Part shown: one piece after another, positions 29,143 through 48,076 of the stretch | Position numbering within the stretch: position 1 is the first letter of the stretch | Layout: each line of letters begins with the position of its first letter | Assembly: GCF_038397755.1 (NCBI RefSeq) | Contig: NZ_CP151637.1 | Location: 1,922,001-1,986,000 of the forward strand | Reading direction: 5' to 3' | Source of the DNA: Microbacterium sp. LWH7-1.2 | Lineage (GTDB): Bacteria > Actinomycetota > Actinomycetes > Actinomycetales > Microbacteriaceae | Length of the DNA stretch: 64,000 nucleotides | Notes under the pieces: generated by a model | Seen by the model: the letters and a program-made list of their open reading frames with translations, nothing else | Databases searched by the model: none | What the model was told of the DNA's origin: nothing | Position numbers and translations under genes: made by a program

Positions 29143-30060
29143 TCAGCTCTCGAGCGATGCGTCGCCGACGCTCGCCTGCTGAGCCCGGGCGAGATCGAAC
29201 ACGCCCCATACCGCCACCGCGCCGGCCGCTGCCAGCAGGAGGAGCGACCAGACCGGCGCACCCGTGGCCTCGCCGAGGATGGCGATGCCGAGCACGACGG
29301 CCACGAAGGGATCGATGACGGTGAGTCCGCCGACGACGACTTCGGGCGAGTTGACGGTGTGCGCCCGCTGGATGAGGTAGATGGCCAGGCCGCCCGAGAG
29401 CGCGATCCCCACAAGGCACGCCAGCGTCAGCAGGTTCGAGGCGTCGAAGCGGTAGTCCTGGGTGGTGAGGACCGTCTGCACCCGCAGGATGACGGTCTTG
29501 CCGAGCGTCGCGACGAAACCCGAGAACACGCCGGCAGCGATGACGATCACGACGGCGGGCATGCGGTGTCCGCGTCCGACGACGGCTGACACGATCGATA
29601 CGCAGAGCACGACGGCGAGCGTCAGCAGGATGGCGACGAGCTGGCGGTCCTCGATGGTGCGCTGGGTGCTCACGAGCGCCGCCACGGTGACGAAAGCGCC
29701 CACCCCGATGACGCTGGTCGCGATGGCGCGCATCTCTCTCCGGGAGGGCTTCCGGTGTGTCGCACGGGCGGTGAGCAGCGAGGCGAAGACCAGTGCGACG
29801 ACTCCCACGGGTTGCACCACGATGAGCGGTGCGAACGTGAGACTCGCCAGCTGAAGCAGGATCGCCGCTCCGATCAGCAGCGCGCCGATCACCCAGGGCC
29901 TGTTGCGCAGGAGTGCGAAGAACTGCTTGGCGCCGAAGGCTCCGGCCTCGCCGCTTCGCACTCCGCGCGCCTGCATCATGTTGCCCAGCGCCAGCATCGC
30001 TGCCGAGGCGACGGCGAGGACGATGCCCAGCACGGGGAACGAAGCGATGGTGGAAGGCAT
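29143..30060 (-). CDS. DMT-superfamily (EamA/NIPA-like) membrane transporter
   Basis: 305 residues with about nine hydrophobic helices and very short loops. The first helix reads GIVLAVASAAMLALGNMMQARGV and the second FAPLIVVQPVGVVALVFASLL, features of the NIPA-like branch of the drug/metabolite superfamily. The two halves show the internal duplication of the family. The substrate cannot be told; NIPA relatives carry Mg2+, others carry metabolites. It is followed by the repeat pair and stands alone. Confidence 0.8.
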   Translation of the reverse strand: MPSTIASFPVLGIVLAVASAAMLALGNMMQARGVRSGEAGAFGAKQFFALLRNRPWVIGALLIGAAILLQLASLTFAPLIVVQPVGVVALVFASLLTARATHRKPSRREMRAIATSVIGVGAFVTVAALVSTQRTIEDRQLVAILLTLAVVLCVSIVSAVVGRGHRMPAVVIVIAAGVFSGFVATLGKTVILRVQTVLTTQDYRFDASNLLTLACLVGIALSGGLAIYLIQRAHTVNSPEVVVGGLTVIDPFVAVVLGIAILGEATGAPVWSLLLLAAAGAVAVWGVFDLARAQQASVGDASLES

Positions 30061-30089: not shown

Positions 30090-30989
30090 CTACACAAGCG
30101 CCCGCGCGATACCGGCGATGGCTGCAGGGCCGACACGACAGCATCCGCCGATGAAGCGCGCGCCCGCCTCCGCCCAGGAGTTCGTGAGCGCCGTGTCGAA
30201 CTCGGGCTCACCGACCCATCGACGAGCTGCGCCATCCCAGATCTCGCCCGAGTTGGGATAGACGATGGCGGGCTTGCCGCTCGCCGCGATCGCGGACCGC
30301 ACCGCCGGCAGCACGTCGCCGGGCGCGCAGCAGTTGACGCCCACGGCCACGATGCCACTATGGTCGGCGGCCAGCGCGAATGCCTCGGCGGCCGGCCGCC
30401 CGTCGCGCAACCGGTCCCCGGCGATGGTGCACGACAGCCAGGCGGGCGTCGCGAACTCGTCGGCGAGATCGAGGAGTACCGAGACCTCGTCGAGATCCGG
30501 GATCGTCTCGAGCGCGAACATGTCGGGGCCCGCGCTTGCCAGCAGCTCCATCCGCGGGGCGTGGAAGTCGCGCAGCGCGGTGCGACTCAGGCCGTAGCGG
30601 CCGCGGTACTCCGATCCGTCGGCGAGCACTGCTCCGTACGGGCCCACGGATGCCGCGACCAGTCGAACCGCATCGTCACCGGCGGACGCGGCGACGTCGT
30701 CGCGCACCTCGCGGGCGATCGTCACACTTCGGGTGATGAGATCCTTCGCCTCGGGGCGGGTCATTCCGGCGCGCTCGAACCCGGCGAAGCTCGCCTGATA
30801 GCTGGCGGTGGTGGCGACCTGCGCGCCCGCGTCGAAATACGCACGGTGCACGGCAGCCACCTCACCGGGCGCGTCGCGCAGCAGCCGCGCGGTCCAGAGT
30901 TCGTCGGTGAGATCGTGGCCGCGTTCGGCGAGCGCGTTGGAGAGCCCACCATCGAGCACGACCACCGCCGGTGTCCGCGACGTCTTCAC
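30090..30989 (-). CDS. Homocysteine S-methyltransferase (MmuM-like)
   Basis: 299 residues, the normal length. The barrel starts VVLDGGLSNALAERGHDL and contains ATTASYQASF near 65. The zinc-binding Cys residues are in GVNCCAPGDV near 215 and IGGCCRVGP near 280. It transfers a methyl group from S-methylmethionine or S-adenosylmethionine to homocysteine to give methionine. It starts at a GTG that overlaps the stop of the upstream PLP enzyme gene (GTGA), so the two are coupled. Confidence 0.92.
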   Translation of the reverse strand: MKTSRTPAVVVLDGGLSNALAERGHDLTDELWTARLLRDAPGEVAAVHRAYFDAGAQVATTASYQASFAGFERAGMTRPEAKDLITRSVTIAREVRDDVAASAGDDAVRLVAASVGPYGAVLADGSEYRGRYGLSRTALRDFHAPRMELLASAGPDMFALETIPDLDEVSVLLDLADEFATPAWLSCTIAGDRLRDGRPAAEAFALAADHSGIVAVGVNCCAPGDVLPAVRSAIAASGKPAIVYPNSGEIWDGAARRWVGEPEFDTALTNSWAEAGARFIGGCCRVGPAAIAGIARALV

Positions 30990-32239
30990 CCACCCATCCT
31001 CTCCGACTCGAGGACCTGTGAGCGGTGCCCTCGCGGCGACGCAAACGTCGCGTCGAGGGCGGCTTCGAGATCTGCGAGCAGATCGGAGGTCTCCTCGATG
31101 CCCACCGAGAGGCGCAGGTGGCCGAAGGTGCGGAAGGGCAGCGGGTAGGTGGCGACGCGACCGCCTTCGGTCCCGGTGTGCACGATGAGCGAGTCGTCGT
31201 GCCCGAGGGAGAAGCCCGAGGTGATGAGTCGGAGGTTGGCGACGAACCGGTTCTGGGTGTCGGGGTCGCCCGCGACGGCGAAGGCGATCATGCCGCCGTA
31301 GCCGCGACCGCCGAACTGCCGCGTCGCCAGGGCATGCTCGGGGTGTGAAGGCAGGCCGGGATAGTAGACGTATTCGACTCGAGAGTCGTCTTCAAGGAAC
31401 TCGGCGACGGCGAGCGCCGACGCCATGTGCTGCCGGAGACGCAGCGGCAGGGTCACCGACCCGCGATGGATCTGCCACGCGTTGAAGGGTGAGATCACTC
31501 CGCCCACGTCGACCATGGCGTCGGCCTTGATCGGCTCGATGAGCTCGCGTGAGCCGATGACGGCGCCTCCCATGGCGTCACCGTGCCCGTTGATGTACTT
31601 GGTCAGCGAGTGCACGACGAGATCCGCACCGTCGGCGAGCGGGCGGTAGAACGGCGGCGGCGTGAAGGTCGAGTCCACCATCAGGATCGCACCGGCAGCG
31701 CGGGTGATCTCCGCGATCGCGGCGACATCGGCCACCTTCGTGGTGGGGTTCGCGATGGCCTCGATGCAGACGAGCCGGGTGCTGGGGCGAAAGGCCGCGC
31801 GCAAGGCATCCAGATCGCCCACGTCGACGAACGTCGCCTCGATGCCGTATCGCTGGGGCAGAAGTTCGGTCCACAGTCGCCAGGTCGCCTCGTACGTGAC
31901 GTCGCTGACGATGACATGGTCGCCGACGCGGACGTGCGTGAAGAAGACCGAATGCAGGGCGGCAACCCCGGATGCCAGCGCAACGGCGTCCTCCCCTCCC
32001 TCGAGGGCTGCGAGCTTGTCTTGCAGGCCGGCCTGGTTGACCCCCGTGTTGCGGGTGTACAGGCCCGGCGCGGAGGCCGACCAGCTAATGTCGCTCGGAT
32101 CGTCGGGAAGCTCGTACGAGTTCGCCATCACCAACGGCGTGCGCAGCGCCTTCGTGGAGTCGAGGCGATTGCCGCCGTGCACGGCGAGGGTGAGGTCCGA
32201 CAGGGTCTCGGCCCGTCGGCGGTCAGGCCGTTGCGACAT
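30986..32239 (-). CDS. Cys/Met-metabolism PLP-dependent enzyme (cystathionine gamma-synthase/lyase family)
   Basis: 417 residues from the ATG at 32239, which has AAGGAAC ahead; a TTG 48 bases upstream is less likely. The family signature with the PLP Lys is LVVHSLTKYINGHGDAMGG near 205, and YTRNTGVNQAGLQDKLAALEG and SGFSLGHDDSLIVHTG are typical. Methionine gamma-lyases have an active-site Cys just after the YG motif; here the segment reads VSDVTYEATW, without Cys, so a methionine lyase is less likely than a cystathionine- or homocysteine-type enzyme. It is cotranscribed with the homocysteine methyltransferase and faces an Lrp regulator. Confidence 0.88.
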   Translation of the reverse strand: MSQRPDRRRAETLSDLTLAVHGGNRLDSTKALRTPLVMANSYELPDDPSDISWSASAPGLYTRNTGVNQAGLQDKLAALEGGEDAVALASGVAALHSVFFTHVRVGDHVIVSDVTYEATWRLWTELLPQRYGIEATFVDVGDLDALRAAFRPSTRLVCIEAIANPTTKVADVAAIAEITRAAGAILMVDSTFTPPPFYRPLADGADLVVHSLTKYINGHGDAMGGAVIGSRELIEPIKADAMVDVGGVISPFNAWQIHRGSVTLPLRLRQHMASALAVAEFLEDDSRVEYVYYPGLPSHPEHALATRQFGGRGYGGMIAFAVAGDPDTQNRFVANLRLITSGFSLGHDDSLIVHTGTEGGRVATYPLPFRTFGHLRLSVGIEETSDLLADLEAALDATFASPRGHRSQVLESERMGG

Positions 32240-32320
32240 TGCGTTCCTTACTGTGCGGCGAAGGGGATAGTGTGCGAGGGTCGGCAACCGATCGAAGGTT
32301 CCCGATCTAAGTTAGTGTGT

Positions 32321-32340
32321 GCAATTGACACTCGCAATTG
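32321..32340. promoter_or_regulatory. Two GCAATTG half-sites between the PLP enzyme and Lrp genes
   Basis: GCAATTG occurs at 32321-32327 and 32334-32340, 13 bases apart (close to one helical turn and a bit), in an AT-rich stretch. Lrp/AsnC proteins bind AT-rich repeats of this kind, so the pair is a candidate autoregulatory and target site. Confidence 0.5.
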
Positions 32341-32358
32341 CTAATCGTGCACGGAGGC

Positions 32359-32805
32359 ATGGTGGCCGGACCGCACCTGGACGACATCGACCAGCAACTG
32401 CTCGCAGCGTTGACCGCGGATGCGAGGCTGCCGATGGTGACTCTGGCAGCCCAGGTGCATCTGTCGCGCAACGCGGTGCGGCAGCGCATCGAACGCATGG
32501 AGCGCGACGGCGTCATCGCCGGTTACACCGTCCTCCGGGGCGCCGCGTCGCGCCCGCGCGTGACCGCGATGGTCATGGTCTACCGCGTCGACCGCATGCG
32601 AGACGATCGGGTGATCCCCGCGTTGCGCGGCATCCCGGAGGTCACCCGCTGCGACGTGCTGTCGGGGGCGTACGACCTTTTCGTGACGCTGGAAGCCGAC
32701 TCGATGGATCGCGTGGGTCAGATCTGGGAGCAGATCGCCGCCCTGCCGGGCGTGGCCGACACGGTGACCGCGGTCTCGCTGTCGCGGGCCATCGACCGGC
32801 GGTGA
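32359..32805 (+). CDS. Lrp/AsnC-family transcriptional regulator
   Basis: 148 residues from the ATG at 32359; the GGAGG is only one base away, so the GTG at 32362 or an upstream start is also possible. The helix-turn-helix reads LDDIDQQLLAALTADARLPMVTLAAQVHLSRNAVRQRIERMERDGVI, then IAGYTVLRG. The RAM domain follows with VTRCDVLSGAYDLFVTLEADSMD, the usual G-x-YD ligand loop. It is divergent from the PLP enzyme/homocysteine methyltransferase pair and probably responds to an amino acid such as methionine. Confidence 0.92.
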   Translation: MVAGPHLDDIDQQLLAALTADARLPMVTLAAQVHLSRNAVRQRIERMERDGVIAGYTVLRGAASRPRVTAMVMVYRVDRMRDDRVIPALRGIPEVTRCDVLSGAYDLFVTLEADSMDRVGQIWEQIAALPGVADTVTAVSLSRAIDRR

Positions 32806-32835
32806 CGCTGCCGCCCGGGAGTCCGGGCGGCAGCG
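32806..32835. terminator. Terminator between Lrp and aspartase genes
   Basis: A 13-base perfect stem (CGCTGCCGCCCGG with CCGGGCGGCAGCG) and a GAGT loop, directly after the Lrp stop and five bases before the end of the converging aspartase gene. It probably works in both directions. Confidence 0.8.
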
Positions 32836-32839
32836 CACC

Positions 32840-34219
32840 TCAGTGGGCCAAGAGCTCAGCTGCCTCTTCTCGCGACAGTCCGGTGTGCTGCGACACGGCG
32901 TCGGCGATCGGGATGCCGGTGCGAAGCGCGTGCTGAGCCGCCCGGGCGGCCGCCTCGTAGCCGATGGACGGCACCAGGGCCGTGACGGTGCCGACAGACG
33001 ATGCCACGTAGCGCGCGAGCACGGTGTCGTTCGCTTCGATGCCCTCCACGCAGAACCGGCGCAGCGCCGAGACGCCGTTGGTCACCCAGCTCAGCGATTG
33101 CAGGAGCGAATGCGCGATGATCGGCTCGAAGGCGTTCAGCTGCAGCTGGCCGCTCTCGGCGGCGACGCCGATCGTGACGTCCGCGCCCATGACCGCGAAG
33201 GCGATCTGGTTCACCACCTCGGGAATGACCGGGTTCACCTTGCCTGGCATGATCGACGACCCGGCTTGGCGGGCGGGGAGGCGGATCTCGCCGAGACCTG
33301 CCTGCGGCCCGCTGGCGAGCAGCCGCAGATCGTTGCTGATCTTCGACAGCTTGATCGCGGTGCGGCGGAGCACCGCGGAGGATTGCAGGAAGGCGCTGAC
33401 GTCCCAGCTGGCTTCGAACAGGTGCGCCGCCGGGGTCAGCGCAAGCCCGGAACGCTCGCGGAGTCGCTCGAGAGCGAGATCCCGATAGCCGGCCGGGGCG
33501 GTCACACCGGTGCCCACGGCAGTGCCGCCGAGGCTGCATTCCAGCAGCAGCGGCACGGTGTCGCCGATGCGCACCACGTCTTCGCGGATGGCGACCGCGA
33601 ACGCGGCGAACTCGTCGCCGAGGGTCATCGGCACGGCATCCTGGAGCTGGGTCCGGCCGATCTTGACGATGGCGCCGAACGCGACGCTTCGCTCTTCGAA
33701 CGCCTCGGCCAGGTCCTCCAGCTCCGGCACCAGCCGCAACAGTCCCTTCACCACGGCGATCTTGACCGCGGTCGGGTAGACGTCGTTGGTCGACTGGCTC
33801 CGGTTCACGTCGTTGATCGGGTGCACGACGTCGTAACGGCCGCGCGGCAGCCCCAGGTGCTCCAGGGCGGCGTTGGCTATCACCTCGTTGGCGTTCATGT
33901 TCGTGCTCGTACCCGCACCGCCCTGCAGGACGTCGACGCAGAACTGGTCGTGCAGCTCACCGGCGCGCACCCTTCGGCAGGCGAAGGCGATGGCCTCTGC
34001 CACTCCCGCCGGCAGCAGCCCGAGCTCGTGGTTGGCGGCGGCAGCAGCATCCTTCACGGTGACAAGGGCGTCGACGAGATCAGGATGCCGCGAGATCGGC
34101 GTGCTGCTGATCGTGAAGTTCTCCCGGGCGCGGGCCGTGTGCACGCCCCAATAGGCGTCGGCCGGCACCGCCAGCTCGCCGAGCGAATCGCGCTCGATCC
34201 GGGTTGTGGACGCGCTCAT
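32840..34219 (-). CDS. aspA: Aspartate ammonia-lyase
   Basis: 459 residues, typical for class II fumarase/aspartase enzymes. The superfamily signature [15 protein letters not shown] with the catalytic Ser is near residue 315; the N-terminal [27 protein letters not shown] is also typical. [17 protein letters not shown] and [17 protein letters not shown] are the substrate-binding segments and favour aspartase over fumarase. It converts L-aspartate to fumarate and ammonia. It is the last gene of an operon after homoserine dehydrogenase and aldehyde dehydrogenase, overlapping the latter by four bases, and so would complete a homoserine-to-fumarate route. Confidence 0.92.
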
Positions 34220-35625
34220 GCGTTGATGCAGACGACTTTGGGCTGGGTCATCTCCTCATACGCGAATCGCACGCCCTCGCGGCCCATGCTGCCGTACTTC
34301 GATCCGCCGAACGGCATGCTGTCGACCCGGTAGTCGGAGGAGTCGTTGATCATCACTCCTCCGGCCTCGAGCTTCTCCGCCACCCGCAGCGCCCGCGTGA
34401 TGTCGCGGGTGAAGGTGGCAGCGTGCAGCGCGTAGTCGACCTCGTTCGCCTGCGCGATCGCCTGTTCCTCGGTCTCGAACCGAGACAGCACAACCACCGG
34501 CGCGAAGGCCTCGTCGGCCCACAGCTCGCACGAGAACGGCACTCCTTCGACGACGGTGGGCCAGTACACCGCGCCCTCCCGGCGGTGCCCCGCCAGCACG
34601 CGGCCGCCCGCCGCCACCGCGTCGTCCACGAGCCGCTCGGCGGCCTCCGCGGACGCGACGGAGATCATCGGGCCGACGTCGGTGGCCTCCTCGCGCGGGT
34701 CGCCCGCGCTGAGGGCGATCGTCTGCGCCGCGAACCGGTCGCGGAACTCTTCGTACACCGCGTCCTGCACGAGGATGCGCTGCGCGCCCACGCAGTTCTG
34801 CCCGGCCGCCCAGAACGCGCCCGACACGCACGCCTCGACCGCGGCCGGGACGTCCGCGTCGGAGAACACGATGACCGGAGCATTGCCACCCAGTTCCATC
34901 GCAAGCTTCTTCAGACCCGCGTTGCGGGCGATCGCTTCACCTGTGGCGAACCCTCCGGTGAAGGACACCATCCGCACCTCGCGGGCCGAGATGAGCGCCT
35001 GCGCCAGTTCACGGTCGCCGTGCACCACGGTGATGATCTCATCGGGGAGACCCGCGTCGATCAGCAGGTCGACGAGGAACCGTGCGGTCAGCGGGGTCAG
35101 CTGCGAGGGCTTGAGCACGACGGAGTTGCCGCCCGCGATGGCCGGACCGAGCTTGTGCGCGACGAGGTTCAGCGCATCGTTGTAGGGAGTGATGGCGACG
35201 ATGATGCCCAGCGGCTCGCGGGTGAACCACCCGCGCCGGTTCTCCGAGCCTTCGAACGCGTCGAACGGGACGACCTCCCCCGCGTCGGAGCGAGCCGCGT
35301 CGGCAGACAGTGACAGCGTCATGACTGCGCGGGCGACCTCCTTCCGCGCCTGACGGAGCGTCTTTCCCGCCTCCCGCACGATCAGTCCCGCGGCGGTCTC
35401 GGCGCGCTCGCCCAGCAGCGTGGACGCGCGCTCGAGGATCTTGTGCCGCGAGAACCGCGACAGCGACCGTGACAGCCCGAACCCGGTGCGGGCGCGGTCC
35501 AGGATCTGCTCGAGCTGGACGGGGCCGGCCTGCGGGACGGTGCCGATCACCTCGCCGTCGAACGGATTCGTGACGACCAGGTCGGGGTATCCGGAGATGG
35601 TCTGTGTGTTCGCCATGACGCTCAC
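34216..35625 (-). CDS. NAD(P)-dependent aldehyde dehydrogenase (putative aspartate-semialdehyde oxidising)
   Basis: 469 residues. Start GTG at 35625 overlaps the stop of the homoserine dehydrogenase gene (GTGA). It has the catalytic Cys in [16 protein letters not shown], the Glu in [12 protein letters not shown], and the cofactor segments [21 protein letters not shown] and [14 protein letters not shown]. The family oxidises aldehydes to acids. In an operon between homoserine dehydrogenase and aspartase the obvious substrate is aspartate semialdehyde, giving aspartate. It is unrelated to the phosphate-dependent biosynthetic Asd. Substrate assignment is inference from gene order. Confidence 0.88.
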
Positions 35626-36677
35626 CGCACAGCCTCGGCGCGAGCGCGCTGGTGCGCGTCGATCGCGATGATGTCCGACAGCAGCGCGTAGGCGGTCTCG
35701 ATGCGACCCGCGCCGGGGCCGGAGACGGTCACCGTGCCGAGGAGATCGGTGTCGAACGAGACCGCGTTCGTCGGACCGCTGACGCTGGCGAGCGGGTGGG
35801 TCAGCGGCAAGGCGACCGGCTCGACCTTCGCGGTGACCGTTCCGGCGGCGTTGCGGAACGCCGACCCGATGAGCTTGTAGCGCTTGCCCTGCGCGGCGGC
35901 TTCGATGATGTCGGCAGCCGAGACCTCGGAGATCCCCCGCCGGGTCACGTCAGCCGTGGTGATGTCGGCGCCGAGGAGCTCGTTCGCCAGGATCACGACC
36001 TTCAGCTGGACGTCGGAGCCCTCGATGTCGGCCGTCGGGTCGGCCTCGGCGTAACCGAGCGCCTGCGCCTCCGCGACGGCGGCGTCCAACGTCATGCCCG
36101 ACTCCATCTGACCGAGCACGTAGTTGCTCGTGCCGTTGAGGATGCCTTCGACCGCGTCGATGCGCAGGCCCCTGAGCGTCTCGGAAGCGAATCGCAGGAT
36201 GGGCGTTCCGCTGACGACCGACCCCTCGTACTGGAAGGTGACGCCGTTCGCGGCCGCGAGACGGTTCAGCTCGAGCCCGCCCAGCGCGACCGGCCCCTTG
36301 TTGGTCGTGGTCACGCTCTTGCCGCTTTCCAGCGCGGCACGCACGTGCGAGATGCCCGGCTCACCGTCGATCGGGTTGGTGAAGGTGGCCTCGACCACGA
36401 TGTCGGCCGTGCTGTTGCGGATCACGTAATCGTTCTGCGGCGCCGCCGTGCCACCCGGCTTGCCGGCGAAGGTCTCACCTTCGGACATCGCGAACACCTC
36501 GGCGAGGTCGATGCCGTCGGCCTGCATCAGCGAGCCCAGGCGGAGATCGGTGATGGCCACGACGCGCAGCGTGAAGCCGAGCTCGGTGGCGAGCTCGTCG
36601 CCGCGGTCGAGGATGATCTGCGCCAGCGCGCGGTTGACGCCGCCGAAGCCGATCAGCGCGATGTCATGACGGTTCAC
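35622..36677 (-). CDS. Homoserine dehydrogenase-like protein without ACT domain (probably catabolic)
   Basis: 351 residues from the GTG at 36677, preceded by GAAGGAGC at good spacing; a TTG 15 bases upstream would place the binding site inside the gene. Rossmann start [20 protein letters not shown]; catalytic region TTTNKGPVA; signature [15 protein letters not shown] and [19 protein letters not shown]. It ends soon after the catalytic domain, without the roughly 80-residue ACT domain of the biosynthetic actinobacterial enzyme, so threonine feedback is not expected. With the coupled aldehyde dehydrogenase and aspartase this suggests oxidation of homoserine to aspartate semialdehyde as a catabolic step. 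Confidence 0.88.
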
Positions 36678-36837
36678 GTCGAGCTCCTTCAAGAGAGGGA
36701 AGAGGTTCGACCCAGCATCGCGGGCGGTCTGGTCAGCCCGCGCCTGCCAGATCGCTCCTGCAGAATGTCAAACTGACCGCCGCGCGGAAGGTCTGCCGGA
36801 ATCGCCCCTGAACGCCGCGAATCCCCGTGCCCGTCTT

Positions 36838-36896
36838 GTGCACCGCGCACCGTGCCAGGTAATCTGCCCGACACATCGTGCGTGCACCATAGGCAC
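36838..36896. promoter_or_regulatory. Two GTGCACC...GCAC palindromic boxes in the divergent control region
   Basis: GTGCACCGCGCAC (36838-36850) and GTGCACCATAGGCAC (36882-36896) share the GTGCACC half and a GCAC partner. They lie between the homoserine dehydrogenase operon and the permease gene. They are candidates for an IclR-family regulator, two of which are encoded downstream. Confidence 0.45.
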
Positions 36897-36958
36897 ATTG
36901 TTGTGATGATGTGGCACAGATTTCCCACACCCGACTTCTCACCCGAATGCGAGAACTC

Positions 36959-38482
36959 ATGAGCCCGCTGCCCCAAGAGAGTGCGCTTCCGAACGCCCTC
37001 CCTCACACCACCGCCACCCAGGTGCCGCTGCGACGACTGCAGCGTTCCATGGACGCGCGCCACCTGATCATGATCGCCCTCGGCGGCGTGATCGGGTCCG
37101 GGCTCTTCCTGAGCTCGGGTTACACCATCAGCCAGGCCGGCCCGCTGGGCGCCATCATCGCGTACCTCATCGGCGCGTTCGTGGTCTGGCTGGTGATGGC
37201 GTGCCTCGGCGAGCTGGCGCTGGCCTATCCCGTGTCGGGCGCGTTCCACATCTACGCGGCACGCTCCATTGGCCCTGCCACGGGCTTCACCACCGCGTGG
37301 CTCTACTGGCTGTGCTGGGTCGTCGCGCTCGGCTCGGAGTTCACGGCATCCGGCATCCTGATGCAGCGCTGGTTCCCGGGCGTCGACGTGTGGGTGTGGT
37401 GCCTGATCTTCGCCCTGGGGCTCTTCACCATCAACGCCATCTCGGCGCGGGTCTTCGGTGAGACGGAGTTCTGGTTCTCGCTGATCAAGGTGGTCGCCAT
37501 CGTCGCGCTCATCGTGTTCGGCGGCATGGCGATCTTCGGCTTCACGCCGCTGTCGAGCGAGCATCCCGCGGCTCCCCTGTTCAGCAACTTCGTCACCCCG
37601 GAAGGCCTGTTCCCGAACGGCGTCGCGGGCGTCGTCGTCACCGCCCTCGCCGTCTTCTATGCGTTCAGCGGCTCGGAGCTGATCGGCGTCGCCGCCGGAG
37701 AGACCAAGGATCCCGGCAAGAACATCCCCAAGGCCATCCGGTCGACCGTCCTCCGACTGCTGATCCTGTTCGTCGGGTCGATCACCGTCATCGCCGCGCT
37801 CCTCCCGTACGAGGACGCAAGCCTCACCAGCAGCCCGTTCGTGGACGTCTTCGAGTACGTGGGCATCCCCTACGCCGCCGACATCATGAACTTCGTCATC
37901 ATCACCGCGCTGCTCTCCGCCGGCAACAGCGGCCTGTTCTCGTGCGCCCGCATGCTCTTCTCGCTCGCCGAGGAGGGCCACGCGCCGCGCGTGCTGCAGC
38001 GCCTGACGCGCCGGGGAATACCGCTGGTCGCACTCACCGTGAGCCTGGCGCTGGGCCTGGTCTCGCTGATCTCCAGCGTGATCGCCCCGCAGACCGTCTA
38101 TCTCGTGCTGGTGTCGATTGCGGGATTCGCCGTCGTCGCCGTGTGGATGTCGATCGTCGCATCGCAGTTCTTCCACCGCCGCAGGTTCGTGCGCGAAGGC
38201 GGCGACGTCTCGGCGCTGCCCTACCGCACACCGCTCTACCCGGCCCTGCCCATCCTCGCCTTCGTGCTGCTGCTGGTCTCGCTCGTGGCCATCGCGTTCG
38301 ACCCGAACCAGGTCGCGGCGCTGTACTTCGGGGTGCCCTTCGTCGGTCTCTGCTACCTGTACTTCTGGTGGCGCTACGGACGCCGCGGCGCGCGCCGGGT
38401 CGTCGCGGTGTCGGAGGAAGCCCCCGTCGACGAGGCGGACGACCCCGTCGCAGAAGAACCGGTCCGCCAGCCCCGCGGGTGA
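36959..38482 (+). CDS. Amino acid permease (APC superfamily)
   Basis: 507 residues from the ATG at 36959; a GTG at 36911 would add 16 residues. The first helix carries the APC substrate motif [20 protein letters not shown], and about twelve helices follow with the [20 protein letters not shown] motif after helix 3. The tail is acidic. It imports an amino acid by ion symport. It is the first of two plus-strand genes (racemase 25 bases downstream), divergent from the homoserine dehydrogenase/aldehyde dehydrogenase/aspartase operon, so homoserine is the best guess for its substrate. Confidence 0.93.
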
Positions 38483-38507
38483 TCGCGGACACCGACCACC
38501 GCCGCCC

Positions 38508-39653
38508 ATGAGCACGACGCCCGCCTGGGTCGAGATCGACGCCGGTGCCATCGCCCACAACCTCGGCCTCGTACGCGGCGAGCTCGGGAGCACGACACGA
38601 CTGTGCGGCGTGGTGAAGGCGGATGCCTACGGACACGGCATCTCGGTCGTGCTCCCGATCCTGATGGCGGCCGGCGTCGATGCCATCGGGATCACCTCCA
38701 ATACGGAGGCCGAGGGGGCACGTCGACGGGGTTTCTCGGGACGCGTCATCCGCCTCCGGGCGGCGCTGCGCGAAGAGGTCGAAGACGGTGGCCGGTTCGA
38801 TATCGAAGAGTGGGTGGGTGGTGGCGAGCACGCGCGTGTCGTGACCGCCGCCGCCCGCTCGCTCGGGCGCCCGGTCCGCGTCCACCTCTCCCTCAACTCC
38901 ACGGGCATCAGTCGAGACGGCATGGACTGGAACGACGCGCAGTCGCAGCGGCACCTTCGTCGTGTCGCGGCGAGCCCCGAGCTCACCGTGGTGGGAATCT
39001 GCTCCCACTTCCCGTGTGAGGACGCCGCGGATGTGATGGCCGGCGCCCACGTCTTCCGCCATCAGGCCGGCGCCGCAGAGCGGCTCCTGGGCGCTTCCCG
39101 CGGGCTCCTCGAGAAGCACTGCGCCACCTCGTATGCGGCGCTGAGCGTTCCCGACTCACGCATGGACATGGTGCGGATCGGTGCAGCTCTCTACGGGGAC
39201 ACCTCGGCCGCAGCCCCCGGGCTTCGCCCCGCCATGCGCCTGGTGTCCCGTATCGCGGCGATCAACGCCTACCCCGCCGGCAGCACCGTCGGGTACGACC
39301 GAGCCGGACGGCTCGACCGTGCCGGCAAACTCGCCGTCGTGCCCCTCGGGTACGCCGACGGATATCCGCGTGTGCTCGGCGGTCGCGCGAACGCGCTCGT
39401 TCGCGGTGCCTTCGTGCCGGTGGTCGACCGGCTCGCGATGAACAGCCTGATCGTCGACGTCACCCATGTGCCCTCGGCCGGCGTCGGAGACGAAGTGGTA
39501 CTTTACGGACGGCAGGGATCGGCACAGATCCACTCGGCCGACATCGAGCGGGCAAGCGGCACCATCGCCGCCGCGGCGTACACGGCGTGGGGTCGACTGA
39601 ACCCACGCGTCGTCGTCAACGTGCCGGTCTCGGCGCCGACTCCCACTCCGTGA
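38508..39653 (+). CDS. Alanine racemase-fold, broad-specificity-type amino acid racemase
   Basis: 381 residues. PLP Lys in GVVKADAYGHG near 38 and catalytic Tyr in NAYPAGSTVGYDRAG. The segments VHLSLNSTGISRDGMD, CSHFPCEDAADVMAG, HCATSYAALSVPDSRMDMVR and VVDRLAMNSLIVDVT match the broad-specificity racemases (Bsr) better than biosynthetic Alr, which has C-M-D where this has A-M-N. Bsr enzymes usually carry a signal peptide; this one does not, so it acts in the cytosol. Next to an amino acid permease and the homoserine operon it may interconvert D- and L-homoserine or a related amino acid. Confidence 0.85.
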   Translation: MSTTPAWVEIDAGAIAHNLGLVRGELGSTTRLCGVVKADAYGHGISVVLPILMAAGVDAIGITSNTEAEGARRRGFSGRVIRLRAALREEVEDGGRFDIEEWVGGGEHARVVTAAARSLGRPVRVHLSLNSTGISRDGMDWNDAQSQRHLRRVAASPELTVVGICSHFPCEDAADVMAGAHVFRHQAGAAERLLGASRGLLEKHCATSYAALSVPDSRMDMVRIGAALYGDTSAAAPGLRPAMRLVSRIAAINAYPAGSTVGYDRAGRLDRAGKLAVVPLGYADGYPRVLGGRANALVRGAFVPVVDRLAMNSLIVDVTHVPSAGVGDEVVLYGRQGSAQIHSADIERASGTIAAAAYTAWGRLNPRVVVNVPVSAPTPTP

Positions 39654-39690
39654 CCAGACGGTGACCCCACCGGCCAGAAAGCACCGAACC

Positions 39691-40443
39691 ATGAGCGCCC
39701 CTTCCTCGCTGCTGCAGGGCATCGCGCTGCTCGACGCGGCGATCGCGCAGGAGCGATCAGGTCGCCAAGGCCACAATGCCTCCCGCCTCTCCGAGGTGAC
39801 CGGCATCGAACGCAGCCGCGTCTCGCGTCTCACCCGCGAACTGCGCGACCTGGGCTACCTCGACCGCGACGACACAGCGGTCTTCAGCGCGGGTGACGAG
39901 TTCTTCCGCGCCGCGGGCGCATTGAGCCGGCCGTGGCTGCGCGCGGCCCGCGAGGACCTGCGCGTCCTGGCCTCCCGGCTGGGAGTCTCGGCCCAGCTGA
40001 TGGCGGCCGAGGGACCGGGCGCCATTCTGCTGCGCTCCGAGAAGGGTCCCGGTGTGTCGGCCGACTATCTTCGCCCTGGCATCGTGACCCCCATCTGGTG
40101 CACCGGTGCGGGGAGGGCACTGCTCTGGGACCACGCCCGGGCGGAGCTTCACGCCCTCCTCGACGACGTGCAGTTCGTCGGCGTCGGCGGTCCCGGTGCA
40201 GCGCGGTCGGTCGACGAGCTCCACCAGCGCCTCGAGCGAGATCGGGATCTCGGGATCGTGGACGCGCGCGAGGAGTACGTCGAAGGCGTGCAGGAGTATG
40301 CGCTGCCGATCCGCGATGACCGGGGCATCGTGGCATCCATCGGCATCAGCGGCGGGGCGCTCTCGGCGCGTCGTGCGAAGGAAGCGCAGAGCGCGCTCCT
40401 GGAGGCCCACACGCGTCTGACCAGCCTCATCCAGGAGCCCTGA
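39691..40443 (+). CDS. IclR-family transcriptional regulator
   Basis: 250 residues from the ATG at 39691 (an in-frame GTG at 39661 is an alternative). N-terminal winged helix: ASRLSEVTGIERSRVSRLTRELRDLGYLDRDD. The ligand-binding domain contains RPGIVTPIWCTGAGRALLWD and a C-terminal EYVEGVQEYALPIRDDRGIVASIGISGG, the conserved effector core of IclR proteins. It follows the racemase by about 40 bases and is probably cotranscribed with permease and racemase. A control role on the divergent catabolic operon is likely. Confidence 0.9.
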   Translation: MSAPSSLLQGIALLDAAIAQERSGRQGHNASRLSEVTGIERSRVSRLTRELRDLGYLDRDDTAVFSAGDEFFRAAGALSRPWLRAAREDLRVLASRLGVSAQLMAAEGPGAILLRSEKGPGVSADYLRPGIVTPIWCTGAGRALLWDHARAELHALLDDVQFVGVGGPGAARSVDELHQRLERDRDLGIVDAREEYVEGVQEYALPIRDDRGIVASIGISGGALSARRAKEAQSALLEAHTRLTSLIQEP

Positions 40444-40457
40444 GACCGAGCGGGCTC
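40435..40457. terminator. Short hairpin between two converging IclR genes
   Basis: GAGCCC and GGGCTC pair across the stop codons of both genes (11-base loop). The genes end only 12 bases apart, so this is the only space for a terminator. The stem is short. Confidence 0.45.
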
Positions 40458-41250
40458 AGCTGGTCCGCGCGGCAGCGGCGCCCAGCGCCGCGGAGAGCCG
40501 GCGGGCCGCGTCGACGCACGCCGCCCCCAGCGCCGCCGACCTCGGCTCGAGCCGGTGGCGCTCTCCCACGATCTGCAGCCCCGCGATGACCTCGCCGCGA
40601 AAGTCCCAGACCGGCGCCGACACGGAGTACAGTCCCGGCTCCGCCTCCTCGGCCACGATCGCGTAGCCCCGGGTCCGCGCCTCTGCCAGCCGCGTGAGGA
40701 ACTCGTCGACCGACGTCGCCGCGTTCGGGCCGGTGCTTCGGAACTCGGTGCGGCTGAACACTCCGCGGATCTCGTCGTCCGAGGCATCCCACAACACCGC
40801 CTGGCCCGCGTCGCTGCAGAACGCCGGGTACCCGCGGCCGATCCACGAACCGATCATGCGCGCGCCGGCCGGCACGCTCTCGACGATGGTGACCGTCGCG
40901 TCACCCTCCAGAACGCCCAGGAAGCACGCCTCTCCGACGCTCGCGGAGAGGTCGTCGAGGATCGTCAGGCCTTCGCTGCGCAGGCGCCGGTCGACCAGCT
41001 GCTCCGCGGTCGCATACCAGCCCCATGCCAGGTGGTAGAGGCCGTCCGGGCCGCGGGTGACGAGCCGTTCGCCTGCCAGAGCGGCGAGCGTGCGCGAGAT
41101 CTGCGAGCGGTCGCGCTGCAGCTCCCGAGCGATGTCCTGGACGGATGCACCGCGTGCACTCGACGCCGACAGCTGGGCGACGCAGGAGAGCACGTCGATC
41201 CCTCTGCCCATGCTGGTCCGCTCGGGAACGAGATCCTCACGAAGCGACAC
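40456..41250 (-). CDS. IclR-family transcriptional regulator
   Basis: 264 residues from the GTG at 41250; ATG at 41211 is possible and would start directly before the helix-turn-helix. DNA-binding part: GASVQDIARELQRDRSQISRTLAALAGERLVTRGPDGLYHLAWG. Effector domain: IGRGYPAFCSDAGQAVLWDASDDEIRGVF and the C-terminal GYAIVAEEAEPGLYSVSAPVWDFRGEVIAGLQIVG. It is similar in layout to the converging IclR gene but clearly different in sequence, so the locus has two IclR regulators. A region rich in pyrimidines precedes the GTG and no ribosome binding site is seen, which suggests leaderless translation. Confidence 0.88.
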   Translation of the reverse strand: MSLREDLVPERTSMGRGIDVLSCVAQLSASSARGASVQDIARELQRDRSQISRTLAALAGERLVTRGPDGLYHLAWGWYATAEQLVDRRLRSEGLTILDDLSASVGEACFLGVLEGDATVTIVESVPAGARMIGSWIGRGYPAFCSDAGQAVLWDASDDEIRGVFSRTEFRSTGPNAATSVDEFLTRLAEARTRGYAIVAEEAEPGLYSVSAPVWDFRGEVIAGLQIVGERHRLEPRSAALGAACVDAARRLSAALGAAAARTS

Positions 41251-41328
41251 AAGGAGAGGATATCCAGGGAATTGCGCGGCGGCGTCCGGAGCCGCGATCA
41301 GTGTCGGTCCGCGCCGGGGCACGGACGA

Positions 41329-41368
41329 ACCGTGGCGGGCCCCCTGCGTCATCGGGGCCCGCCACGGT
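41329..41368 (-). terminator. Strong terminator downstream of the fasciclin gene
   Basis: A perfect 15-base stem (ACCGTGGCGGGCCCC with GGGGCCCGCCACGGT) with a ten-base loop, 12 bases after the stop of the fasciclin gene. It is one of the strongest hairpins in the window. Confidence 0.8.
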
Positions 41369-45096: not shown

Positions 45097-46590
45097 TCAC
45101 GCGCGCGTGGGCGTGGGAACGGAGAGTTCGCGAATCGTCACATCATGGAAGACCGCGGTCGCGCCGCGCGCGAAGAGTCGGATGCCGTCATCCCCGGGGG
45201 CCGGGAAGACGCGGTGCGACTGCACGCTGCGACCGCTGTCCACGAACAGCTCGACACTCGTCCGATCGACCAGGAGGCGGATCCCCACGCGTCCGGCCGA
45301 CGGGTCGAGCGGGGCTTGCGTGCGGCCTCGCGTGGGGTTGACGGTCAGCGTTCGGTCCACATAGGCGTGCGGACCGAACAGGTTGAGCCCGGCGGCGACG
45401 AAGCGAGACCCGCCGGCGGCACGGCACACCTCGAAGCCGATGTCGCCGGTGTGGTCCGCAGCGTCGGAATCCCACTGAATCTCGCAGCTCAGGTCGTACG
45501 CGGGCGCGCGGACTTCGAGATCGAGGTCACCGTCGACCTCGACGTCGCCGAGGCGGTGCGTGCGAGTGGCGTACCCCGTCAACGCGGCGGTGGGAACGGC
45601 GGCGAGGGCGTATCCGTCGTGCTCGCGCACCAGGCGAAGGTCCCGGACGATCATGTCGTCGCCGTTGTAGCCGTCGGCCACGAGGGTGAGAGTGTTGTGC
45701 GGGTAGTCCCAGAAGTTCGCCCAGCCGATCGCGTGGCGAAGGGACGGGTCTTCCGCACCGGAGGCGTCGTGGTGCGCGTAGGTGACGGCGCCGTAGAAGT
45801 CGAAGCCCCAGTCGAGCCAGCGGGGCTCGTGCGCATCGGGAAGGAACCGGCTGCCGTCGAAGGCACCCGTCCAGTAGGCATAGGTGGCGGGAAGGCCGCG
45901 GTACTTCGCGTTGGCGCTGACCCCGAGAACCCACTGCGACGATCCGTCGTCGGCGGTCATCTCGAAGATGTCCGGGCACTCCAGCAGTCCCAGGTCGCCG
46001 CGGGCGAACTCGCCGACCCGCGTCCAGGTGGCGAGATCGGGCGACGCGTAGAAGCCGAGGCGGTAGCCCTCGGCGAGGGCCATGAACCACCGGCCACGGC
46101 TGCCGTCCCAGATCACCTTGGGGTCGCGGAACTCCGTGCGGTCCGGGTCGGCCAGCACCGGGTCGTTCCCGCCGGGCCGGAAGGATCGGCCGCCGTCGGT
46201 GGAGTACCAGATGAACTGTGCCTGGCCTCCCTCGGGCACCTGGTCGACCCGGGCCTGGGTGACCACGGCGATCACCGCTCCGCGTCCGAACCCGGCGGTG
46301 TCCTCGGTGTCGATGACGAGCGATCCCGACCAGCAGTCACCGTTACCGTTGGTGAACTTCTCTATCGCGACGCCATGATCGACGAAGCTCACGTGATCCC
46401 GGGTGGTGGCCCGGCGCCACGACGTGCCGATGCCGCCGGCGAGGTAGTCCGCGTTGTACAGGTAGTAGTAGTGGTACTCGCCGTCGACGAAGATGGGCCG
46501 CTGCGGATCGTTCTTCCAGTTGTCGGGCACGCTGAAATGAAACTCGGGCCGCATGGTGCGCCCCGCCGGCTGCCCGGGGCCGATGCTCAT
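45097..46590 (-). CDS. Glycoside hydrolase family 32 (fructosidase) 1
   Basis: 497 residues from the ATG at 46590, which overlaps the stop of the second GH32 gene (ATGA). Motifs: nucleophile Asp in PDNWKNDPQRPIFVDGEYH, RDP in TEFRDPKVIWDG, and acid/base Glu in GLLECPDIFEM. The usual C-terminal beta-sandwich follows (RLLVDRTSVELFVDSGRSVQSHRVFP). WKNDPQRP replaces the common WMNDPNG, placing it in a separate subgroup, perhaps levan- or inulin-type. No signal peptide, so it acts on imported fructo-oligosaccharides. Last gene of a seven-gene operon. Confidence 0.92.
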   Translation of the reverse strand: MSIGPGQPAGRTMRPEFHFSVPDNWKNDPQRPIFVDGEYHYYYLYNADYLAGGIGTSWRRATTRDHVSFVDHGVAIEKFTNGNGDCWSGSLVIDTEDTAGFGRGAVIAVVTQARVDQVPEGGQAQFIWYSTDGGRSFRPGGNDPVLADPDRTEFRDPKVIWDGSRGRWFMALAEGYRLGFYASPDLATWTRVGEFARGDLGLLECPDIFEMTADDGSSQWVLGVSANAKYRGLPATYAYWTGAFDGSRFLPDAHEPRWLDWGFDFYGAVTYAHHDASGAEDPSLRHAIGWANFWDYPHNTLTLVADGYNGDDMIVRDLRLVREHDGYALAAVPTAALTGYATRTHRLGDVEVDGDLDLEVRAPAYDLSCEIQWDSDAADHTGDIGFEVCRAAGGSRFVAAGLNLFGPHAYVDRTLTVNPTRGRTQAPLDPSAGRVGIRLLVDRTSVELFVDSGRSVQSHRVFPAPGDDGIRLFARGATAVFHDVTIRELSVPTPTRA

Positions 46591-48076
46591 ACGCCGGCCG
46601 CCGCGTCCCGTGCGACCCGGTGCATGGACCAGACGCGCAGCTGCGCCGGGACGCCGTCCCCCGACAGGCGGATGGCGAGGGCGTCGGGACGGGTCGGGTA
46701 GACGCGCGCCGTCAGCGGGACTCCGCCCGCGAACACCTCGAGCGCCGAATGGTCCACGAGGATCCGCACGTCCAGGCCCCCGTCGGCGTCCACGGGCACC
46801 TCTCCCGCGCGCGGGCTCGCGTCGACCACGGGGTCCAGGCTCGACCGGGTGCGGTCCAGCCTCAGCTCGGCGCGATCGCCGTGCCGCCGCAGGTGCAGGA
46901 CCGTGCGCTCGGCGTCGTCGTCGGTGGCCCGCAGGGCGATCGTGACGGCACCGTCGTCGGGAATCGTCAGCCGCAGCTCGAGATCGAGCTCGTCCCCACG
47001 GACGACGTCCACCGGATCGGCGCTCAGCACCGAGGAGAAGGACGCCACCTGCTCGTCGCGTAGCGCGTCGACCTCGGGAGCCGGCGCCTGATGGATGGAT
47101 CCGTCCGGCGCGGCCGTCACCACGCGCGGCAGGGACATGACGCCCGACCACCCCGCTGCGACGGCGGCACTGTCGGGTCGCCCCTCCTGCAACCAGCCGA
47201 ACATGAGGCGCCTACCCGACTCGTCGCGCATCGACTGCGGCGCGTAGAAGTAGCGTCCGCCCAGATCGAGGCGATGGAGCGCCGCCGACGTGAAGCGGTC
47301 GCCCTCGTACCGACCGGACCAGTACAGCGGGTGGTGGGTGACGCCGTCGTCCCACGCCGAGAACACGAGGATGTCGCGGTGCGCGGCATCCTCCCCGCCG
47401 ATCCGGAACAGGTCGACGCACTCCCACATGGTGCCGGTCCAGTCGGGAGCGCCCGCCTCGCCCACCGCGCTGTCGCCGACCAGCAGTGGCCCGACGTAGG
47501 CCCACTCGCGCAGGTCGGTGGACTCGTAGAGGAACGCCGTTCCTCCGCGGCCCCGGATGCCGGAGCCGATCAGCTGGCGCCAGGTCTCACCCTCGCGCCA
47601 CACGCAGTGGTCGCGGAACGCAGTGACCTCGACACCCGCCGGTGGCGCCGCGATCACCGGGTTCTCGGCGACCTTCGTCCACTCGACGAGATCGGGCGAA
47701 CCGGTCGCCACGCACGGCAGCTCCCTGTCACCGTGCCGACCGGAGTACACGATCGTGGGCGTGTCGCCGTCGTACACGAGCACGCCGGACCAGCATCCGT
47801 CGACGTCGGGGCCGTCGCTCGGGGTCAGCGCGATCGGCAGATCGCGCCAGTGCACCAGGTCGGTGCTGACGGCGTGCCCCCAATGGATGCGGTGGTGCAG
47901 CGGCGCATACGGGTTGAACTGATAGAAGAGGTGGTACTCGCCGTCTCGCTGGGTCAGGCCATTCGGATCGTTCAGCCATCCCGCAGGCGCAGTGAAATGG
48001 TAGGCCGGGCGGTGCGGATCAGCGGCGGCGCGCGCGATCAGCTCGGCCGGGACGAGCGTGGATGTGGATGTCGCGG

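What the first reader, a model, noticed from the sequence alone, without database searches (positions are those of the whole stretch)
30986..40443. Putative complete homoserine catabolic locus (D/L-homoserine to fumarate)
Homoserine dehydrogenase (without ACT domain), aldehyde dehydrogenase and aspartase are in one operon with four-base overlaps. Divergent from it are an amino acid permease, a broad-specificity-type amino acid racemase and IclR regulators. The order of reactions fits: import, racemisation, oxidation to aspartate semialdehyde, oxidation to aspartate, deamination to fumarate and ammonia. Loss of the ACT domain fits a catabolic enzyme free from threonine feedback. A homoserine catabolism cluster is, as far as I recall, described in Rhizobium leguminosarum, but I know no actinobacterial version with a racemase. 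The next-door PLP enzyme and homocysteine methyltransferase may be related.
Basis: partly seen in the sequence, partly recalled or inferred. Interest (0 to 1): 0.75.

Follow-up and report, generated by a model that had tools for sequence, protein, structure and literature searches.

The report
Probable canavanine-to-homoserine breakdown gene cluster
A Microbacterium-type soil bacterium carries a gene cluster that probably takes up an unusual plant amino acid (most likely the legume toxin canavanine), cuts it to homoserine and burns that to fumarate, a pathway so far described in pseudomonads and rhizobia.

Summary
In detail: an ACT-less homoserine dehydrogenase (HSD), aldehyde dehydrogenase (ALDH) and aspartase overlap by 4 bases; divergent are an APC permease, a Bsr-type racemase and IclR genes; an ACT-bearing hom lies elsewhere. 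It is about 63-68% identical to the PLP enzyme that in Mesorhizobium, Rhizobium, Sinorhizobium and Pseudomonas lies in one locus with HSD, ALDH and a standalone B3/4 gene, the published layout for canavanine utilisation (canavanine -> homoserine + hydroxyguanidine). A 36-bp palindrome lies upstream of the PLP gene and again between HSD and permease (chance 0.08 per window); 28 of 29 related HSD loci have both copies, 0 of 46 HSD-less loci have any. In 198 genomes of the genus all 21 catabolic HSDs lie 3.0-4.6 kb from the PLP gene; all 16 Bsr-type racemases lie 2.8-3.0 kb from such an HSD. Best reading: an actinobacterial canavanine locus, the racemase perhaps admitting D-canavanine. Against: no standalone B3/4 editor, no SMR exporter, a clade-specific pocket change, a permease nearest the S-methylmethionine family, mmuM next door. 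The substrate is inferred, not shown.

The parts
30986..32239 (-). PLP-dependent gamma-lyase of the Cys/Met metabolism fold, canavanine-gamma-lyase-like (417 aa from ATG 32239; the ORF extends to TTG 32287)
   Evidence: PF01053; about 63-68% identity to the PLP gene of B3/4-bearing loci; motif YEAT where four own-genome paralogues and the methionine gamma-lyase structures shown have YG; tree
32317..32352 (.). 36-bp palindromic, operator-like site, copy 1, between PLP gene and Lrp gene
   Evidence: 0 mismatches to GTGC-N3-AT-N3-CA-N8-TG-N3-AT-N4-CAC on the minus strand, 1 on the plus strand
32338..32805 (+). Lrp/AsnC-family regulator (the listed TTG start lies inside the palindrome; the true start may be a later codon)
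   Evidence: PF13404 and PF01037; in 34 of 34 HSD loci, 0 of 46 others
32840..34219 (-). aspartate ammonia-lyase (aspartase)
   Evidence: NCBIfam NF008909 655 bits, over its cut-off of 510; under the cut-off of the narrower aspA equivalog (579 of 681)
34216..35625 (-). aldehyde dehydrogenase, presumed non-phosphorylating aspartate-semialdehyde dehydrogenase
   Evidence: PF00171; 57-66% to ALDHs next to HSD in Pseudomonas, rhizobia and Streptomyces; no NCBIfam model over its cut-off in the 25 of 45 rows shown
35622..36692 (-). catabolic-type homoserine dehydrogenase without ACT domain
   Evidence: NF004912 433 bits, over cut-off 373; 58-67% in the 40 of 123 plasmid records listed, 37% to the genome's own other hom
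36882..36917 (.). 36-bp palindromic, operator-like site, copy 2, between HSD and permease genes
   Evidence: 0 mismatches on both strands
36911..38482 (+). APC amino acid permease, nearest the S-methylmethionine permease family but under its cut-off (609 of 716 bits); the listed GTG start overlaps the palindrome, so the true start may be later
38508..39653 (+). Bsr-type (broad-specificity) amino acid racemase without N-terminal extension
   Evidence: in 198 genus genomes found at E<=1e-60 in 16, all beside catabolic HSD
39661..40443 (+). IclR-family regulator 1
   Evidence: PF01614, PF09339; in 29 of 34 HSD loci, 0 of 46 others
40456..41352 (-). IclR-family regulator 2
   Evidence: PF01614; in 29 of 34 HSD loci, 0 of 46 others
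30090..30989 (-). homocysteine S-methyltransferase (mmuM), 4-base overlap with the PLP gene; accessory, role unexplained
   Evidence: NF007020 356 bits, over cut-off 215; near 11 of 34 HSD loci, 0 of 46 others

Best explanation
An actinobacterial canavanine-catabolic locus. The APC permease imports the plant amino acid canavanine; the Bsr-type racemase brings D-canavanine into the L-pool; the PLP enzyme eliminates hydroxyguanidine at the gamma carbon and water adds, giving homoserine; HSD oxidises it to aspartate semialdehyde, ALDH to aspartate, aspartase to fumarate and ammonia. A regulator (Lrp, or an IclR) binds the 36-bp palindrome in both divergent promoter regions. Shown: gene content, conserved linkage, shared palindrome, clade membership of the PLP enzyme. 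Inferred: substrate, each reaction, direction of racemisation, that the palindrome is an operator and which regulator binds it, fate of hydroxyguanidine (leaves the cell by an unknown route).
For: PLP enzyme about 63-68% identical to that of loci with B3/4, HSD, ALDH and SMR and/or ABC-import genes in Mesorhizobium, Rhizobium, Sinorhizobium and Pseudomonas; in the published canavanine operons the B3/4 editor CtdA lies directly in front, and canavanine-gamma-lyase gives homoserine and hydroxyguanidine (PMC10018355 passages; PMC12508155 passages). HSD linkage appears in two separate subclades of the PLP tree. Streptomyces loci L044 and L121 hold PLP gene, trio and two SMR-like genes (32-37% to the rhizobial one); the Pseudomonas SMR protein is nearest SugE, 117 bits, under that model's cut-off of 126. 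Shared palindrome. Genus co-occurrence 21 of 21. Nearest racemase structure is the P. putida Bsr; P. putida Alr prefers Lys and Arg (PMC6034422 abstract); canavanine can be racemised by Bsr enzymes (PMC10390336 passage).
Against: No standalone B3/4 gene in this genome (one PF03483 hit, in a PheT-like frame behind a pheS-like frame, read from sequence) and no PF00893 (SMR) hit. F344, beside the catalytic-site Ser, is fixed in 38 of 38 HSD- or permease-linked Microbacteriaceae-type PLP rows but V in 7 of 7 B3/4-linked plus Streptomyces rows and 36 of 37 unlinked rows: a possible change of substrate. E118 is Q in P. jessenii and D in Streptomyces. Permease nearest the S-methylmethionine family and mmuM next door. 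The record titles of the carriers name no legume source (titles rarely give a source). A genome of the same order (G063) keeps HSD, ALDH, permease, IclRs and Lrp with no PLP match at E<=1e-120.
Confidence: 0.58

Rival explanations
1. Plain homoserine locus: permease imports D- or L-homoserine, racemase interconverts them, trio oxidises to fumarate; the PLP enzyme only accompanies it, for instance as a methionine or cystathionine lyase.
For: G063 has the HSD/ALDH/permease/IclR/Lrp set and no PLP match; rhizobial plasmid stretches L040 (tblastn) and L045 (annotation only) show HSD-ALDH-dapA-aspartase-kinase-Lrp with no such PLP gene; homoserine catabolism in R. leguminosarum is published (PMC10228743 passages).
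Against: Shared palindrome at the PLP gene and at HSD/permease; 21 of 21 HSD genomes in the genus sample have the PLP gene within 4.7 kb; 8 loci keep permease plus PLP without HSD.
Confidence: 0.18
2. S-methylmethionine catabolism: MmuP-like permease imports S-methylmethionine, the PLP enzyme releases dimethyl sulfide and homoserine, mmuM uses the same compound to make methionine, the trio burns homoserine.
For: Permease best NCBIfam family is the S-methylmethionine permease, 609 bits against 375 for the next; mmuM overlaps the PLP gene here and lies near 11 of 34 HSD loci, 0 of 46 others; mmuM and the PLP gene share genomes more than chance, 19 genomes (relatedness ignored); F344 tracks the permease.
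Against: Permease under the family's cut-off; of 12 regions fetched around mmuM (of 47 genomes with mmuM) 2 are HSD loci and the other 10 hold no such permease in 15-16 kb; mmuM mostly distant from the PLP gene, under 10 kb in 6 of 19 genomes; no reason for a Bsr racemase; the relatives with published function are canavanine-linked.
Confidence: 0.14
3. The PLP enzyme acts on some other gamma-substituted homoserine derivative; the rest as above.
For: Clade-specific pocket change; many PLP copies stand alone in unrelated surroundings.
Against: No positive candidate substrate found.
Confidence: 0.1

Closest known systems
Canavanine utilisation via canavanine-gamma-lyase in Pseudomonas canavaninivorans and Rhizobiales (Hauth et al. 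2022, not held; described in passages of PMC10018355, PMC12508155, PMC11018352)
   Same: PLP enzyme of the same clade as in B3/4-bearing Pseudomonas and rhizobial loci, next to HSD, ALDH, Lrp and (rhizobia) aspartase; homoserine as intermediate
   Different: APC permease instead of an ABC importer, Bsr-type racemase, two IclRs, own 36-bp palindrome; no standalone B3/4 (CtdA) editor, no SMR gene, no dapA or kinase gene in the locus
Homoserine catabolic cluster of Rhizobium leguminosarum (Vanderlinde et al. 2014, not held; cited in PMC10228743)
   Same: An HSD of the oxidising type lies close to it according to PMC10228743 (passages); HSD-ALDH-aspartase conserved in rhizobial plasmids
   Different: Cluster content RLV_473-482 was not compared; the window adds the PLP enzyme
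Oxidising homoserine dehydrogenase of Arthrobacter nicotinovorans (Liang et al. 2022, not held; cited in PMC10228743)
   Same: An HSD said to run towards oxidation of homoserine
   Different: Its sequence was not compared here
Broad-specificity racemases (Bsr), e.g. P. putida 4dyj
   Same: Best sequence match over nearly the full length; LNSxGxSRxG stretch shared
   Different: No N-terminal extension in front of the domain, so probably cytoplasmic (inference)

Membership tests
Canavanine-gamma-lyase pathway | PLP gamma-lyase of the clade found in B3/4-bearing loci | tested here: met
Canavanine-gamma-lyase pathway | Linked HSD, ALDH and aspartase genes | tested here: met
   that the ALDH oxidises aspartate semialdehyde is inferred
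Canavanine-gamma-lyase pathway | Standalone B3/4 editor (CtdA) in front (usual, not strictly defining) | tested here: not met
Canavanine-gamma-lyase pathway | SMR exporter gene (seen in Pseudomonas, Streptomyces and some rhizobial loci here; not strictly defining) | tested here: not met
   0 hits of PF00893 in the genome
Canavanine-gamma-lyase pathway | Enzyme cleaves canavanine to homoserine and hydroxyguanidine | not testable with these tools
   needs assay
Catabolic homoserine dehydrogenase | No ACT domain, and a second ACT-bearing hom elsewhere | tested here: met
Catabolic homoserine dehydrogenase | Runs towards oxidation of homoserine | not testable with these tools
   needs assay
Bsr racemase | Sequence closer to Bsr than to Alr | tested here: met
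   323 against 143 bits
Bsr racemase | Targeting sequence for the periplasm (as in P. putida Alr) | tested here: not met
   protein starts at the domain with start codon 38508; judged from the alignment, no signal-peptide program was run
S-methylmethionine permease MmuP | Score over the curated cut-off | tested here: not met
   609 against 716 bits
MmuM homocysteine S-methyltransferase | Score over the curated cut-off | tested here: met
   356 against 215 bits

The most novel reading that the evidence does not exclude
In this Microbacteriaceae clade the gamma-lyase has shifted, together with the MmuP-like permease, mmuM and the F344 pocket change, from canavanine to S-methylmethionine, so that the locus turns a common plant metabolite into dimethyl sulfide plus homoserine and burns the latter: a genetic basis for bacterial S-methylmethionine cleavage. 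(A milder novel case, probability about 0.35: a canavanine pathway that accepts both enantiomers through a dedicated cytoplasmic Bsr racemase.)
Probability: 0.13. Interest if true: 0.75.

Novelty: new variant of a known kind. Interest (0 to 1): 0.55.

Why it matters
Canavanine is a plant defence compound and its bacterial breakdown was described for pseudomonads and rhizobia. A racemase-bearing version in Microbacterium and kin would extend the trait to actinobacteria, tie Bsr racemases and D-canavanine to a catabolic route, and correct database names (among 120 relatives listed these PLP enzymes bear names such as methionine gamma-lyase, cystathionine gamma-lyase or homocysteine desulfhydrase where they have one). 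One purified enzyme and three substrates would settle it.

Tried and rejected
Guanidine or other riboswitches: no Rfam match at gathering score in the window. SMR exporter in the genome: none. The membrane-protein-like ORF 29143-30060(-) after mmuM as exporter: no Pfam match at 1e-5, not followed further. Neighbours of stand-alone PLP genes as substrate clue: 10 ORFs typed and some gave trigger factor, MFS, SelO, TPR, sulfate permease, ThiC-associated, P450, hydrolase and others, nothing recurrent. mmuM as core partner: rejected as core, kept as unexplained accessory. Biosynthetic role of the HSD: rejected. Sampling 396 genomes of the phylum gave 2 with HSD at E<=1e-80 (the window's own and G063) and 3 with PLP at E<=1e-120 (the own and two others), too few for statistics. 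The palindrome was read off an alignment of the window and 27 loci, so its recurrence there is not independent; the two window copies against shuffles, the HSD-less loci, and L060 and L073 (not in that alignment) are the fairer tests; L060 keeps one copy only. At 0 mismatches only 13 of 29 loci have both copies. The hypergeometric values ignore relatedness of the genomes. No structure was predicted.
Full report
What is there. Ten genes from 30090 to 41352 were typed with NCBIfam and Pfam. On the minus strand HSD (35622-36692), ALDH (34216-35625) and aspartase (32840-34219) follow one another with 4-base overlaps. HSD has only the NAD-binding and catalytic domains. Aspartase scores over the cut-off of the aspartate ammonia-lyase subfamily model (655 of 510 bits). 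Divergently run an APC permease, a racemase and an IclR gene, then a second IclR on the minus strand. Downstream of the trio an Lrp gene (+) and a PLP enzyme (-) diverge, and mmuM overlaps the PLP gene by 4 bases.

Is HSD catabolic? The genome has two PF00742 hits. The other lies in a 629-residue frame that also carries an ACT domain (29.3 bits, cut-off 27), next to frames with the domains expected of thrC, thrB and lysA. The window HSD is 37% identical to it but 58-67% to HSDs in the 40 of 123 plasmid records listed. Eight of these records were opened. Of the six annotated rhizobial or agrobacterial ones, five have ALDH and aspartase after HSD (in L041 an insertion-sequence gene stands between HSD and ALDH); in the sixth, L039 of Agrobacterium pusense, only an ALDH fragment was found and no aspartase. 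Both Streptomyces records have all three (L038 by annotation, L044 by tblastn). PMC10228743 (passages only) says that R. leguminosarum RLV_0467 belongs to a family described from Arthrobacter nicotinovorans that runs towards oxidation; neither sequence was compared here.

What feeds it? tblastn of the window proteins found the PLP enzyme 64% and 63% identical in rhizobial plasmid loci L041 and L042, where it sits with a B3/4-domain gene, an ABC importer, an SMR gene and HSD-ALDH-dapA-aspartase. A scan of one genome for each of 84,980 species gave 268 relatives of which the best 80 were kept. Among the 80, 34 have HSD nearby. With HSD and without: ALDH and Lrp 34 of 34 and 0 of 46; permease 29 of 34 and 8 of 46; IclR1 and IclR2 29 of 34 and 0 of 46; racemase 23 of 34 and 0 of 46; aspartase 11 of 34 and 0 of 46; mmuM 11 of 34 and 0 of 46; B3/4 4 of 34 and 0 of 46; SMR 3 of 34 and 0 of 46. 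Loci reach about 10 kb to each side and some are shorter, so absences mean absence from the stretch; in L050 the racemase match covers only 41%. The B3/4 loci are two Pseudomonas and two Mesorhizobium; the P. jessenii B3/4 and SMR genes were confirmed by Pfam. PMC10018355 (passages) states that in P. [quoted passage not shown] leguminosarum a homologue lies with canavanine degradation genes, and that canavanine-gamma-lyase makes hydroxyguanidine and homoserine; PMC12508155 (passages) repeats the reaction; PMC11018352 (passages) says that P. canavaninivorans secretes hydroxyguanidine.

PLP family. In the script's 86 family rows Y117 is invariant and the next residue is E in 83 (D, Q and G in one each), where four paralogues of this genome and the methionine gamma-lyase structures shown have G. 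The G row is L123, where the script picked a paralogue, as the tree shows. In the tree (90 rows, IQ-TREE) 85 rows are separated from the paralogues; the six B3/4-linked rows form one clade (97/81) next to Streptomyces L121; 41 HSD- or permease-linked rows, all from Microbacteriaceae or unnamed Actinomycetota bins, form another (100/100); stand-alone copies lie elsewhere. So HSD linkage stands in two separate subclades. Results against a shared substrate: F344 is in 30 of 30 HSD-linked and 8 of 8 permease-only rows, V in 7 of 7 B3/4-linked plus Streptomyces rows and 36 of 37 stand-alone rows; W124 and C159 separate the same two clades and T356 mostly does; E118 is Q in P. jessenii and D in Streptomyces. 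That residue 344 borders the catalytic site follows from the alignment to C. freundii lyase with site knowledge recalled.

One regulon. Aligning the two intergenic regions over relatives showed the same 36-bp palindrome in both. In the window it occurs at 32317-32352 and 36882-36917 and nowhere else at up to 2 mismatches; 100 shuffles gave a mean of 0.08 and none reached the observed 4 strand-wise matches. Over the 29 HSD loci of Microbacteriaceae type, both copies are present in 13 at 0 mismatches, 25 at up to 1 and 28 at up to 2 (L060 keeps one); 0 of 46 loci without HSD have any at up to 2 (885 kb); of the 5 other HSD loci one (L122) has a match at 2 mismatches, away from the PLP gene. G063's locus has none at up to 2. 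That it is an operator, and for which regulator, is inference.

Genus survey. Of 198 genomes of the window's genus (no names; Microbacterium by inference) 21 have the HSD at E<=1e-80, 37 the PLP enzyme at E<=1e-120, 16 the racemase at E<=1e-60, 47 mmuM at E<=1e-40. All 21 HSDs are 3.0-4.6 kb from the PLP gene; all 16 racemases are 2.8-3.0 kb from the HSD; mmuM shares a genome with the PLP gene in 19, on the same contig in 16, under 10 kb in 6. So 16 of 37 PLP genomes lack the HSD: there the PLP gene must have another outlet.

Racemase. The six best PDB matches (E<=1e-60) are named broad-specificity, lysine or alanine racemases, the best being 4dyj, a broad specificity amino acid racemase (that 4dyj is the P. 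putida enzyme is recalled). P. putida Alr prefers Lys and Arg and is periplasmic (PMC6034422, abstract and outline). The window protein has no N-terminal extension. PMC10390336 (passage) says, citing Aliashkevich et al. 2021 (not read), that canavanine can be racemised by microbial Bsr enzymes. That this racemase acts on canavanine is inference.

Rivals. The S-methylmethionine reading rests on the permease (its relatives L036 and L066 likewise, whereas the P. jessenii permease is nearest asparagine permease) and on mmuM, and is weakened, where 10 of 12 regions fetched around mmuM are not HSD loci and none of these 10 holds such a permease. The plain homoserine reading rests on G063, which has no PLP match at E<=1e-120, and on rhizobial stretches L040 and L045.

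Verdict. My odds: the chemistry from homoserine to fumarate about 0.85; that the PLP enzyme feeds it about 0.8; that the fed compound is canavanine 0.58. Literature: the listings of searches (12 of 18 listed; 15 of 336 listed) showed no actinobacterial canavanine or S-methylmethionine locus of this kind, but the library lacks the main paper, and I cannot say that it does not mention actinobacteria.

Noticed in passing
L066, L068, L075, L076, L078, L080, L081, L082: Eight loci, several from M. testaceum, keep only the divergent permease-PLP pair without HSD, regulators or the 36-bp palindrome; possibly a detoxification version.
   Followed up: partly
L077, L083, L084, L086-L097 and others (38 of 80 loci): Copies of the PLP gene in many actinobacterial genera with none of the locus genes nearby and unrelated neighbours where typed.
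   Followed up: partly
L036 15563-15598: In G063 a palindrome resembling the operator-like site (3 mismatches to the pattern) lies shortly upstream of a 43%-identical mmuM homologue.
   Followed up: no
L148 6789-8528; L149 9508-11180: A 53%-identical mmuM stands head to head with the IclR2 gene at the far end of the locus, so mmuM has joined the locus in two different places.
   Followed up: partly
L039 7992-10735: In an Agrobacterium pusense plasmid the HSD is followed by only a fragment of the ALDH, then a phosphotransferase and Lrp; it looks decayed. A PLP relative on the same plasmid lies about 138 kb away (H49).
   Followed up: no
window 29143-30060: A membrane-protein-like ORF 29 bases after mmuM on the same strand has no Pfam match at 1e-5.
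   Followed up: no
window 45097-47151: Long minus-strand ORF that reads like a glycoside hydrolase family 32 fructan or sucrose hydrolase (read from sequence only).
   Followed up: no
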